From the NCBI GenBank assembly GCA_012517355.1, contig JAAYVD010000038.1, positions 1 through 37,641 on the forward strand: a stretch of 37,641 nucleotides of DNA, written 5' to 3'. Every line of letters begins with the position of its first letter. The first letter of the stretch is position 1. The position numbers and the translations under genes are program-made. Below are positions 17,648 through 37,323 of the stretch, one piece after another. Below the pieces are notes generated by a model that was given only the letters and a program-made list of their open reading frames with translations, had not been told where the DNA came from and did no database searches. This DNA comes from Candidatus Rifleibacteriota bacterium. GTDB taxonomy: Bacteria > Muiribacteriota > Ozemobacteria > Ozemobacterales > Ozemobacteraceae.

Positions 17648-17770
17648 CGAATTCGGAGGGCCGTGCCGCCCCCAGCGGCCCAGTAAGGCGCTTCGCGCCT
17701 GACCCTGCCGAATGCGGAGCATGGAGGAAGACTCCCAACCAAAACCCTCATCATTCCCATCCCTGCACCG

Positions 17771-17967
17771 GTGTCCTGACCCCGTTCGCCCTTTCCCCCC
17801 CTTCCCCGCTTCCCCTGCGATCTTAAAGTACCTGGAAAATGCAGGTCTCTTCTTCTACCCTCCCATCCAAACCTCGAACCCTCCTGCTCCGCAAGGGTGC
17901 CCTGACCCCGTTCGCCCCTTCCCCCCCTTCCCCGCTTCCCCTGTGGTCCCAAAGTAATTGGAAACTC
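17771..17967 (+). repeat. Two copies of a ~72-bp pyrimidine-rich repeat
   Basis: Copies at about 17771-17842 and 17897-17967, 126 bases apart, share CCTGACCCCGTTCGCC, CCCCCCTTCCCCGCTTCCCC and an AAAGTA...TGGAAA ending, with about a dozen changes. A weaker relative (TCCTGACTCCCCGCG...) lies near 27255-27295. They fill most of the 462-base gap between the desulfidase-like gene and the pyrophosphatase, which also holds an AGGCGC-TTC-GCGCCT hairpin at 17686-17700. Confidence 0.7.
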
Positions 17968-17990
17968 CGCCAGGATCTCCTCTCCCCACG

Positions 17991-30235: not shown

Positions 30236-31432
30236 ATGACTGCCGAAATCCGCCCGGGCATCCACTGGGTCGGGTCCATCGAATGGACGTTGAAGCATTT
30301 CCACAGCCACGAACTCTCGATCTACCGTGGCACCACCTATAATTCCTACCTCGTCGTCGACGACAAGATCGCCCTCATCGACACCGTCAAGAACACCCAC
30401 CTCGAGGAGTTCCTGCGCGAGGTCGAGAAGATCGTGCCGGTCTCGAAGATCGACTACCTCGTCGTCGACCACTGCGAGCCCGACCACGGCGGGTCGATCC
30501 CCGCCCTGCTGGCCAGGAACCCCAACCTGAAGATCGTCTGCAGCAAGGGTGGCCAGGTCTCGGTCAACCGGCATCATCCCGGGATCACCAACCTGCAGGT
30601 GGTCAAGACCGGTGACTCGCTGTCGCTCGGGAAGCGCACCCTGCGCTTCTTCGAGGCCCAGATGCTGCACTGGCCGGACACCATGTTCTCCTATTGCCCC
30701 GAGGAGAAACTGCTGTTCTCGGCCGATGCTTTCGGCCAGCACTACGCCCACGCCAACCGGTTCGCCGACCAGGTCGATGCATGCGAGCTGTGGGAAGAGG
30801 CGATCAAATACTTCGCCAATATCCTGACCCCGTTCTGTGGCCAGATCGTCAAGAAGATCAACGAGTTCAGCGCCCTCAACTGGCCCCTCGAGGTGATCTG
30901 CCCGGCCCACGGTGCCATCTGGCGCCAGGACCCGATGCAGATCGTCAAAAAATACCTCGAGTGGTCCTCCGGCAAGGCCGAGCCCACCGCCGTCGTCGTC
31001 TTCGACTCGATCTGGCACGGCACCGAGCGCATGGCCAAGGCCATCTGCCGCGGCCTCGAGGCGGAAGGGGTGACCTATCGGCTGTACCACGCCGGCGTCG
31101 CCGATCTGCACGACGTCATGACGCAGATGCTGCTGGCCCGCGGCCTGCTCATCGGTGGCCCGACCCTGAACAACAACCTGATGCCCTCCCTGGCGCCCTA
31201 TCTCGAGGAACTGCGCGGCCTGCGGTTCCTCAACAAGATCGGGGCCGCCTTCGGCACCTACGGCTGGAGCGGGGAAGGGGTCAAACGCTTCGAAGAGGCC
31301 CTCGACAAGGCCACCATCAAGGTGGTCCAGCCCGGCCTGCGTGTCCAGTTCGCCCCCAACGAGGATGACCTGAAGACCTGCGAGGCCTTCGGGCGTGAGT
31401 TCGCCCGCCGCATCAAGGAGATGGCGGGGTGA
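30236..31432 (+). CDS. fprA: Flavodiiron protein (oxygen/NO reductase)
   Basis: This cytoplasmic enzyme reduces O2 to water, or NO to N2O, protecting anaerobes. It has 398 residues. The metallo-beta-lactamase-like domain (about 1-245) carries the di-iron ligands H79, E81 and D83 in HCEPDHGG, H145 in MLHWPD, D164 in SADAFG and H225 in CPAHG. The flavodoxin domain (about 250-398) begins AVVVFDSIWHGTERMA and has GGPTLNNN for FMN binding. There is no fused rubredoxin, and no rubredoxin gene adjoins. The ATG at 30236 has AAAGGAG upstream. The next open frame overlaps its stop in GTGA. The partner electron donor and true substrate cannot be told from sequence. Confidence 0.96.
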   Translation: MTAEIRPGIHWVGSIEWTLKHFHSHELSIYRGTTYNSYLVVDDKIALIDTVKNTHLEEFLREVEKIVPVSKIDYLVVDHCEPDHGGSIPALLARNPNLKIVCSKGGQVSVNRHHPGITNLQVVKTGDSLSLGKRTLRFFEAQMLHWPDTMFSYCPEEKLLFSADAFGQHYAHANRFADQVDACELWEEAIKYFANILTPFCGQIVKKINEFSALNWPLEVICPAHGAIWRQDPMQIVKKYLEWSSGKAEPTAVVVFDSIWHGTERMAKAICRGLEAEGVTYRLYHAGVADLHDVMTQMLLARGLLIGGPTLNNNLMPSLAPYLEELRGLRFLNKIGAAFGTYGWSGEGVKRFEEALDKATIKVVQPGLRVQFAPNEDDLKTCEAFGREFARRIKEMAG

Positions 31433-31662
31433 ACCCGGCCGGCCACCCCGCCCCGCCCGTCGGGCGCGGTCGGCCGGACCAGCCGATCCCTTACCACCGC
31501 GGGGATCCCCTGCGGGATACCCGTGGCGGCTCGGCTTCGGCCCGGGGTCTGGCGCGCGGTTCGGCGCGCGGTCCGGGTGGACCCGCGCCGGGAGTCCAAA
31601 GGGCCGGCACCTGGTGGCGGGGCGGCCGTTCCGCCGGCGTGGGGCCTGGGATCTGCTCAGGC

Positions 31663-32292
31663 ATGGCCCGGCCGGGCCTGCTTCGGGCCTGGCCGTGGTC
31701 GGCGATCGGGAGCGTTCGTCCCGCCTGCCGGCCCGCCTTGCTCCTCCAGGTTCTCGCCTGGCTGGCGCTGGCGGTGGGCGGCTTCTCCGGTCCCGCCGCC
31801 GGGGCCGACGCCTATCCTCCCCCCGTGCGCGTGGTGGCCGTGGCCGACGTGGTCGAGCTGCAGCACGGGACCTTCGCCGTCCACGAGTTCCTCGACGTCT
31901 ACAACGACGATTACCACCGGCCGCTGACCGTGCTGGCCGCCCGGGCCGAATGCTGGGTCGGCCGCCGCCGGGACCGCATGGGCGAGAACTGGCTCCCAGG
32001 GGAGGTTCCCCAGGTCGTGCCGCCCGCCTCCACCCGGCGGGTCGCGGAACGGCAACGGATCGTCACCGGCCGCCCGCGCCGGAACTGGTGGGTGCGCTGG
32101 CTGCGGTTCGCCGTCGAGACCGACCGTGGGACCTTCCTCTCGAACTTTGCCGACTCCCCACTGCGGCCGCCAGGGAGGCTCGTCTCCGACACCCGTGACG
32201 GGGAGATCGACACCTGGTCCTCCCCACCCGGGCATGCCTCGGCCCCGTCCGGCCCCGGGGGCGTCTGGCAGACCTGGCCGGAAGGCCGATAG
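31663..32292 (+). CDS. Exported protein of unknown function
   Basis: The frame is open from a GTG at 31429 overlapping the fprA stop, but the first 78 codons give an Arg/Gly/Pro-rich, unlikely peptide. From the ATG at 31663 the product is 209 residues with a basic N-terminus and a hydrophobic signal (about 24-43, ending AAGADA). The mature part looks beta-rich, with VRVVAVADVVELQHGTFAVHEFLDVYN and WWVRWLRFAVETDRGTFLSNF. No family is recognised. There is no good ribosome-binding site at 31663, so the start is tentative; the alternative is translation coupled to fprA from 31429. Nothing else is seen in 31433-31662. Confidence 0.5.
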   Translation: MARPGLLRAWPWSAIGSVRPACRPALLLQVLAWLALAVGGFSGPAAGADAYPPPVRVVAVADVVELQHGTFAVHEFLDVYNDDYHRPLTVLAARAECWVGRRRDRMGENWLPGEVPQVVPPASTRRVAERQRIVTGRPRRNWWVRWLRFAVETDRGTFLSNFADSPLRPPGRLVSDTRDGEIDTWSSPPGHASAPSGPGGVWQTWPEGR

Positions 32293-32355
32293 GCCGGCAG
32301 GCTGGCAGACGCCCGGCGTCGGTTCCCCGGGAGGGGATCGTGGCACCATTTTTCC

Positions 32356-32533
32356 GAGACTTCCGCATTTCGACAGAAACCTCGAGGGTGGCAGGGGATT
32401 GGGAGGAAGGGGGGACGGGTCGAAGGGAGTGGGGGGCGGGGCGAAGGGAGTCGCCAGCACGGTCGGCACTATCAGAATCGATGGGTGGATGATGAACGGG
32501 CAATCGATGCGTCCGTCGAAATGCGGGAGTGTC
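32356..32533. mobile_element. Probable 178-bp MITE
   Basis: The left end GAGACTTCCGCATTTCGAC (32356-32374) and the reverse complement of the right end (32515-32533) match at 17 of 19 positions. Immediately outside both ends is the direct repeat ATTTTTCC (32348-32355 and 32534-32541), an 8-bp target-site duplication. No transposase is encoded; the interior is G-rich with CGAAGGGAGT repeated at 32421 and 32442. These features define a miniature inverted-repeat transposable element moved by some full-length insertion sequence elsewhere. It lies in the 329-base gap 32293-32621, and its right duplication ends six bases before a -35 element. Confidence 0.75.
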
Positions 32534-32546
32534 ATTTTTCCCTGGC

Positions 32547-32575
32547 TTGCCTGGGCGGGATGGTTCCGGTATCGT
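32547..32575 (+). promoter_or_regulatory. Probable promoter of the nagA-like gene
   Basis: TTGCCT (32547-32552) and TATCGT (32570-32575) are separated by 17 bases. Each matches consensus at four of six positions. Initiation near 32582 leaves a 40-base leader with AAGGAG. Confidence 0.5.
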
Positions 32576-32621
32576 TGAAGGGCAGGTGTCCTGGCATCCT
32601 TCCTGCCAAGGAGTCGGAATC

Positions 32622-33710
32622 ATGGCCCCACGGATCTGTTCTGGCGCCCTGCCCCCGGAATCCATCCTGTGCCTCCCGGTCCGTGACCTGGAATCCGACC
32701 AGCCGGTCGATACCCGCTCCCTCGCCGGCTACCGGCTGCCCGGGGTCATCGACATCCATGTCCACGGCGGGTTCGGCTGGGATTTCGCGTTCGGCGACCC
32801 CGACCGGATCGAGACCATGCTCGACGGCTTCCTGGCCAGAGGGGTGACCGGGGTCGTCGCCACCCTCATCACCTGCTCCGAGGAACAGCGTCTGCAGTCC
32901 CTGGCCGACATCGCCACCGTGGCCGGCCGTCGCCAGAGGCCCCCGGCCATTCTCGGGATCTACCTGGAAGGCCCCTTCCTGGCCCCTTCCCGCCGGGGGT
33001 CGCATCCGGCCGACCTGCTCCGCCTCCCCGATCTCGCCGCCCTGCATCGCTGGCAGGACAAGGCCCGCGGCATGATCCGCCTGGTGACCCTCGCCCCCGA
33101 ACTGCCCGGGGCCATCGATTTCATCCGCCAGGTCCAGGATGACCTGAAGATCCGCGTGGCCATCGGCCACACCGATGCCGACCACGCCACCACCACCGCC
33201 GCCCTCGAAGCCGGGGCTTCCCACGTCACCCACCTCTACAACGCCATGCGGCCCTTCACCCACCGCGATCCGACCGCCGTCTCGGCCATCCTGCGCCACC
33301 GCAACGTCCTGGTGGAGCTGATCGCCGACGGCATCCACGTCTGCCCCGAGATCGTCCAGATGACCTTCGGGCTCCTGGGAGGGGAGCGAATTTCGCTGGT
33401 ATCCGACTGCGTCAGCCCGGCCGGGCTTCCCGACGGCATCCACGAGGCCTACGGCACCTCCCTCGAACTGCGGGCCGGGCGCTGCACCTTCGTCGGCGGC
33501 CACCTGTTCGGCGGGGGGCGGACCCTGCCCGACTGCCTGCCGGTGCTGCGCGACGTGGTGCGCCTGCCCCTCTCCACCATCGCTTCCAGCGTCTCCCACC
33601 GGCCGTGCCAGGCCCTCGGCCTCGACCTGCCACCGGGGGACGTCCTGTTCGACCAGGACTTCCGGTGGCTGGCCACGCGCCAGGGCGGAACCTGGTTCTG
33701 GGCCGGGTGA
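32622..33710 (+). CDS. nagA: N-acetylglucosamine-6-phosphate deacetylase-like amidohydrolase
   Basis: The enzyme is predicted to deacetylate GlcNAc-6-phosphate during amino-sugar use or cell-wall recycling. It has 362 residues. The metal and catalytic residues of the family are seen: H46/H48 in DIHVHGGFG, E116 in LEGPF, H183 in IGHTDADH, H204 in THLYNAM and catalytic D262 in VSDCVSPAG. The N-terminal beta-sandwich is shortened relative to typical NagA (about 380-400 residues), and the conserved Gly/Ser/Leu loop before the C-terminal helix is altered (GGGRTLPDC), so the substrate may differ. The ATG at 32622 has AAGGAG upstream. Its stop overlaps the next gene in GTGA. No nagB or sugar transporter is nearby. 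Confidence 0.88.
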   Translation: MAPRICSGALPPESILCLPVRDLESDQPVDTRSLAGYRLPGVIDIHVHGGFGWDFAFGDPDRIETMLDGFLARGVTGVVATLITCSEEQRLQSLADIATVAGRRQRPPAILGIYLEGPFLAPSRRGSHPADLLRLPDLAALHRWQDKARGMIRLVTLAPELPGAIDFIRQVQDDLKIRVAIGHTDADHATTTAALEAGASHVTHLYNAMRPFTHRDPTAVSAILRHRNVLVELIADGIHVCPEIVQMTFGLLGGERISLVSDCVSPAGLPDGIHEAYGTSLELRAGRCTFVGGHLFGGGRTLPDCLPVLRDVVRLPLSTIASSVSHRPCQALGLDLPPGDVLFDQDFRWLATRQGGTWFWAG

Positions 33711-37064: not shown

Positions 37065-37149
37065 GCGAGGTGAACGCGTCAGCGTTCACCTCGCCAGCAG
37101 AAAGGGTCCAGGGCCATTGGCCCTGGTGGGGTGTAGGGGCAACGCCCCT
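37065..37149. other. Three consecutive hairpins downstream of the large exported protein gene
   Basis: GCGAGGTGAACGC/GCGTTCACCTCGC (37065-37077 with 37082-37094, loop GTCA) is a perfect 13-bp stem. CCAGGGCCA/TGGCCCTGG (37108-37116 with 37118-37126) and AGGGGC/GCCCCT (37135-37140 with 37144-37149) follow. None has a T-tract on the plus strand. They occupy part of the 406-base gap 37001-37406, which also contains the second copy of the 86-bp repeat and no gene. Confidence 0.6.
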
Positions 37150-37323
37150 TCGGCAAGCCTTTGTGCAGATCATGGAAAAAAACGACATTGTTTGCCGGGC
37201 CAGGCGGGGCAAGGAAAGCCACCGTTTTGCAGAGGATTCCCAACCTCCGAGATGGGGGCTCTGGCACCATTTGATGCGGCCGATAATGCTCATCATTTTT
37301 GCGAGGAGAAACGAGTCCCGGGT

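What the first reader, a model, noticed from the sequence alone, without database searches (positions are those of the whole stretch)
32348..32541. Probable MITE with 8-bp target duplication next to the nagA-like promoter
Inverted ends of 19 bp (17 of 19 identical) at 32356-32374 and 32515-32533 are bounded on both sides by the identical 8-mer ATTTTTCC, as expected after transposition. The element is 178 bp with no coding capacity, and its right edge is 14 bp from the -35 hexamer of the nagA-like promoter. It could have supplied, altered or insulated regulation of that gene. An 8-bp duplication narrows the possible parent insertion-sequence families, but none is identified.
Basis: partly seen in the sequence, partly recalled or inferred. 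Interest (0 to 1): 0.72.

Follow-up and report, generated by a model that had tools for sequence, protein, structure and literature searches.

The report
Multi-copy bacterial MITE upstream of nagA
The 178-bp stretch is one of dozens of copies of a small, non-coding 'hitch-hiker' transposon scattered through the genome of an uncultured Ozemobacter bacterium; it landed just upstream of a nagA promoter that was already there, so it is real but of an ordinary kind.

Summary
The window lies in an uncultured species of the genus Ozemobacter (Ca. Riflebacteria). Its genome holds at least 57 near full-length copies of this element (157-bp consensus, mean pairwise identity 82.5%). The terminal repeat occurs at 155 sites, against 2 for a reversed control. 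Target duplications are exactly 8 bp: mean 5.7 of 8 matches against 2.5 for re-paired flanks. One copy sits inside a dispersed repeat whose unoccupied copies carry the octamer once, which is direct evidence of insertion with an 8-bp duplication. The window copy is 178 bp because of a 21-bp internal tandem duplication. Two sibling genomes keep the same gene pair without the MITE and conserve the promoter-like sequence in front of nagA, so that promoter is ancestral and was not supplied by the element. The family shows no fixed-distance promoter targeting, conserved RNA structure, coding frame or orientation preference; it most likely spread as a passive transposase substrate. It is confined to this species, apart from one left-end relic in a sibling. 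No autonomous parent was found; IS256 and ISKra4 transposases are not detected in this assembly. Verdict: a new family of a known kind, low interest.

The parts
32348..32355 (.). left copy of the 8-bp target duplication, ATTTTTCC
   Evidence: family-wide 8-bp duplication
32356..32374 (+). left terminal inverted repeat GAGACTTCCGCATTTCGAC (imperfect pairing extends to 32385)
   Evidence: consensus
32356..32533 (+). the MITE itself, 178 bp, non-coding, same orientation as the family consensus
32405..32446 (+). 21-bp tandem duplication (32405-32425 and 32426-32446) that makes this copy 178 bp instead of about 157
   Evidence: model positions 55-75 matched twice
32515..32533 (-). right terminal inverted repeat GACACTCCCGCATTTCGAC read inward (imperfect pairing extends to 32504)
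32534..32541 (.). right copy of the target duplication, ATTTTTCC
32547..32575 (+). promoter-like TTGCCT-17-TATCGT of nagA, outside the MITE and conserved in MITE-free siblings
   Evidence: the strict sigma-70 scan did not call it
32608..32613 (+). Shine-Dalgarno-like AAGGAG of nagA
32622..33710 (+). nagA-like gene (amidohydrolase; N-acetylglucosamine-6-phosphate deacetylase model TIGR00221, E 2.9e-66, 1.7 bits below its cut-off)
31471..32292 (+). upstream gene of unknown function, co-directional with nagA; the same neighbour in siblings

Best explanation
The element is one copy of a non-autonomous DNA transposon family (a MITE) that amplified in the lineage of this Ozemobacter species. A transposase acting in trans recognised the roughly 19-27 bp inverted ends (GAGACTTCmGCATTTCGACAGAAACCT on the left; GACACTCCAGCATTTCGACTGACGCAT read inward on the right) and inserted the element at 8-bp sites that are AT-rich inside and G/C at the edges (roughly GAAWWTTC), with gap repair producing the 8-bp duplication. 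Shown: copies, ends, exact 8-bp duplication, an empty site, species restriction. Inferred: mobilisation in trans by a DDE-type, possibly Mutator-like, transposase now absent from the assembly or lost. At this locus it inserted just upstream of an existing nagA promoter. The core promoter was left intact, and the duplicated ATTTTTCC keeps the same AT-rich octamer beside the -35, so the effect on nagA is probably small (inference).
For: The own-genome search finds tens of dispersed copies at 73-91% identity. The terminal repeat has 155 sites at up to 3 mismatches against 2 for the reversed control. In 57 near full-length copies the flanks match at 67-75% of sequences for exactly 8 positions and at 14-28% beyond; the mean is 5.68 of 8 against 2.46 for re-paired flanks, and 40 of 57 have at least 6 of 8 against about 1.7 expected. 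Copy L105_444 sits in a dispersed repeat with GCATAAAG on both sides, while an unoccupied repeat (L048, 97.4% identical across the junction) has GCATAAAG once. The phylum scan shows 88 sites at up to 1 mismatch in this genome and one chance-like site in 39 others. At the orthologous locus both siblings lack the element.
Against: No autonomous element or transposase with these ends was found: every 0-1 mismatch end that I traced belongs to a MITE or a truncated MITE, and the IS256 and ISKra4 transposase models gave no hit in this genome (the ISAzo13 search was uninformative). ATTTTTCC is not recognisable in the siblings, which are too diverged, so the empty-site proof comes from another copy of the family.
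Confidence: 0.96

Rival explanations
1. The MITE supplied the nagA promoter or brings an outward promoter, as some Correia elements do.
For: It sits 13 bases upstream of the -35-like hexamer. Promoter-carrying MITEs are known (review PMC10969869).
Against: The promoter-like sequence is outside the element and is conserved in two siblings without it: 21 of 30 bases with each sibling, reached by only about 0.2% of random window stretches. The strict scan finds no promoter-like site in 32250-32650, so none inside the element.
Confidence: 0.04
2. The element modulates nagA (displaces an upstream activator site, insulates from read-through of the upstream gene, or forms a hairpin in a read-through transcript) without supplying the promoter.
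For: Position between two co-directional genes and immediately upstream of the promoter. Its long imperfect inverted ends could pair in RNA.
Against: Folding energy is unremarkable (z -1.28). There is no conserved RNA structure over 57 copies. Copies lie between tandem, convergent and a few divergent genes alike, with no sign of selected placement. No Rfam family matches in the window.
Confidence: 0.15
3. The transposase targets sites a fixed distance upstream of sigma-70 promoters, as TnGBS/ISLre2 and some ISKra4 elements do (15-17 bp from the -35; PMC3942029).
For: The window copy lies 13 bp upstream of a -35-like hexamer, and the duplication length (8 bp) and a terminal G/C fit Mutator-like elements.
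Against: Across 57 copies neither flank shows a -35 or -10 signal at any fixed distance. Promoter-like hits with the -35 at 10-21 bp are 1 (right) and 3 (left) against about 1 expected.
Confidence: 0.02
4. It is not a transposon but an extragenic palindrome or a structured RNA element spread by other means.
For: Many copies, intergenic, palindromic ends.
Against: Exact 8-bp flank duplications and an empty site with a single octamer.
Confidence: 0.01

Closest known systems
Prokaryotic MITEs such as Chunjie (Geobacter), QMITE2 (Coxiella), Correia (Neisseria) (review PMC10969869)
   Same: About 150-240 bp, non-coding, inverted ends, direct repeats, tens of diverged and truncated copies, mostly intergenic.
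   Different: Different terminal sequence and host phylum (Riflebacteria). No internal promoter found, unlike Correia.
Mutator-like prokaryotic transposons (IS256, ISH6, ISLre2/TnGBS, ISKra4; PMC3942029)
   Same: 8-bp duplication; inverted ends of at least 18 bp with a 5' G / terminal C; AT-rich target core, as in ISH6.
   Different: No transposase is attached. IS256 relatives in the same family of bacteria (L164, L165) appear to have different ends (best inverted repeats GGTTGTGTAAAA-type). IS256 and ISKra4 models give no hit in this genome.

Membership tests
MITE | terminal inverted repeats | tested here: met
   17 of 19 in the window copy; conserved in 57 copies
MITE | short and without coding capacity | tested here: met
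   157-bp consensus; copy lengths 131-178 bp that break any shared frame
MITE | multiple dispersed copies | tested here: met
MITE | target-site duplication of fixed length | tested here: met
   8 bp; empty site
MITE | autonomous parent with the same ends (usual, not required) | tested here: inconclusive
   none found in own genome, family or phylum, but the assembly is in 184 contigs and a parent may be unassembled or lost
Mutator-like (p-MULT) transposon derivative | 8-9 bp duplication and 18-39 bp ends with terminal C | tested here: met
   against the description in PMC3942029
Mutator-like (p-MULT) transposon derivative | mobilised by a Mutator-like transposase | tested here: inconclusive
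   PF00872 and NF033572 absent in own genome; ISLre2 and ISH6 models were not searched
Promoter-carrying MITE (Correia type) | outward promoter inside the element | tested here: not met
   no site in the strict scan; nagA promoter-like sequence lies outside and is ancestral

The most novel reading that the evidence does not exclude
The family belongs to an uncharacterised transposase lineage with 8-bp GAAWWTTC-like targeting that has been lost from, or lies in the unassembled part of, this genome, and a subset of copies, including the one at nagA, has been co-opted as cis-regulatory spacers.
Probability: 0.08. Interest if true: 0.45.

Novelty: new member of a known kind. Interest (0 to 1): 0.25.

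Why it matters
It is a well-supported MITE family in the little-studied phylum Ca. Riflebacteria, with defined ends, target preference and an empty-site proof. It gives genome annotators a ready model and shows that the nagA promoter predates the insertion. It does not change general understanding of MITEs.

Tried and rejected
ISAzo13 transposase model in the own genome: none, and the control genomes did not ring either, so uninformative. IS256 model: none in the own genome; relatives' IS256 ends differ. ISKra4 model: only fragments in sibling G002, and the ends near them do not match. Exact end pattern in named genomes and in viral contigs: no hits; the own genome may be masked there. Fixed-distance promoter targeting: rejected. 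Conserved RNA structure: rejected. Isolated ends followed by 3.5-4 kb of flank to look for a full-length parent: only truncated MITEs were seen, sometimes ending around model position 72 in the G-rich tract, plus one pattern match at C71 with no MITE around it. Literature searches gave reviews of MITEs and Mutator-like elements but no description of this family.

Full report
Observation. The described ends, the 178-bp length and the flanking ATTTTTCC octamers are exactly as stated. The inverted ends extend, less perfectly, to 30 nt.

Copies. A search of the window's own genome (7.11 Mb, 184 contigs) finds the element tens of times at 73-91% identity, mostly about 150-180 bp long. A consensus of the end (GASACTYCMGCATTTCGAC, up to 3 mismatches) has 155 sites against 2 for the reversed control. 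I fetched about 80 places, built a profile and kept 57 near full-length copies. The consensus is 157 bp, mean pairwise identity is 82.5%, and bimodal positions suggest subfamilies. The window copy is longer because model positions 55-75 are present twice (32405-32425 and 32426-32446).

Transposition. Flanks of the 57 copies match for exactly 8 positions (67-75% per position) and not beyond (14-28%). The mean is 5.68 of 8 against 2.46 for re-paired flanks. The target tends towards GAAWWTTC. The cleanest proof is copy L105_444. [quoted passage not shown] The window itself holds an unoccupied copy of that repeat at 37107-37182 (89.5% identical).

Taxon and distribution. The end pattern at up to 1 mismatch has 88 sites in this genome and a single, apparently genic, site in 39 other genomes of the phylum. 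At up to 2 mismatches the sibling G002 has one site, which the profile matches over positions 2-57 and which looks like a left-end relic. The amplification is therefore specific to this species' lineage.

The nagA locus. The siblings keep the same neighbour gene and nagA, with no MITE between them. The promoter-like TTGCCT-17-TATCGT at 32547-32575 aligns with TTGCGA-17-TAAGGT in G001 and TTGCGG-17-TAAGGT in G002: 21 of 30 bases with each sibling, a score reached by only about 0.2% of random window stretches. The match to the sigma-70 consensus is weak and the strict scan does not report it, so 'promoter' is an inference from conservation and position. On that reading the insertion left the core promoter untouched. 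The target octamer was not recognisable in the siblings, so the exact empty allele at this locus is not demonstrated. The gene product matches the nagA model just below its cut-off.

Function. I tested three ways the element could do more than move. (a) Fixed-distance targeting upstream of promoters, known for some Mutator-like elements (PMC3942029): not seen in the 57 copies. (b) Conserved RNA structure: not seen. (c) Preferred placement or orientation relative to genes: with a rough codon-usage gene model, none of 56 copies lies inside a coding stretch, and neighbours are tandem (22), convergent (9) and divergent (4), with 21 unresolved. The simplest reading is passive spread into tolerated intergenic sites.

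Parent. The 8-bp duplication and ends with a 5' G and terminal C fit the Mutator-like group (PMC3942029), but this is only a resemblance. IS256 and ISKra4 models are absent from the own genome, and relatives' IS256 elements appear to have different ends. ISLre2, ISH6, IS1595 and ISL3 models were not searched. The parent may be lost or missing from the fragmented assembly.

Noticed in passing
window 17755-17990: Two copies of a purine-rich repeat (74 nt at 86%, spacing 126) that shares about 45 bp with the MITE's G-rich core. Related repeats occur across the genome, some as tandem arrays of period 112-119 bp (L183, L185) and at contig ends.
   Followed up: partly
window 37107-37182; also L048, L030, L071, L106 and sibling locus L109: Dispersed repeat with the core GATCCGCATAAAGGCTTGCCGAAGGGGCTTTGCCCC, containing a GGGGC..GCCCC hairpin, also present upstream of nagA in sibling G002. 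One MITE copy is inserted in it.
   Followed up: partly
flanks of L029, L034, L037, L045, L071; L183: Recurrent sequence GGTCATGTGTCCCCGAAATT next to several MITE copies and elsewhere, apparently another dispersed repeat of this genome.
   Followed up: no
L041 (G000:C19:4600-5800): Three MITE copies packed next to each other within about 460 bp, one apparently at the very end of another, so the elements may insert into or beside each other.
   Followed up: no
L181 (G002:C118:6-368): C-terminal fragment of an ISKra4-type transposase at a contig end in the sibling genome, suggesting a multi-copy insertion sequence that broke the assembly.
   Followed up: partly
window 30239-31432: Flavorubredoxin/A-type flavoprotein-like gene two genes upstream of nagA.
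   Followed up: no
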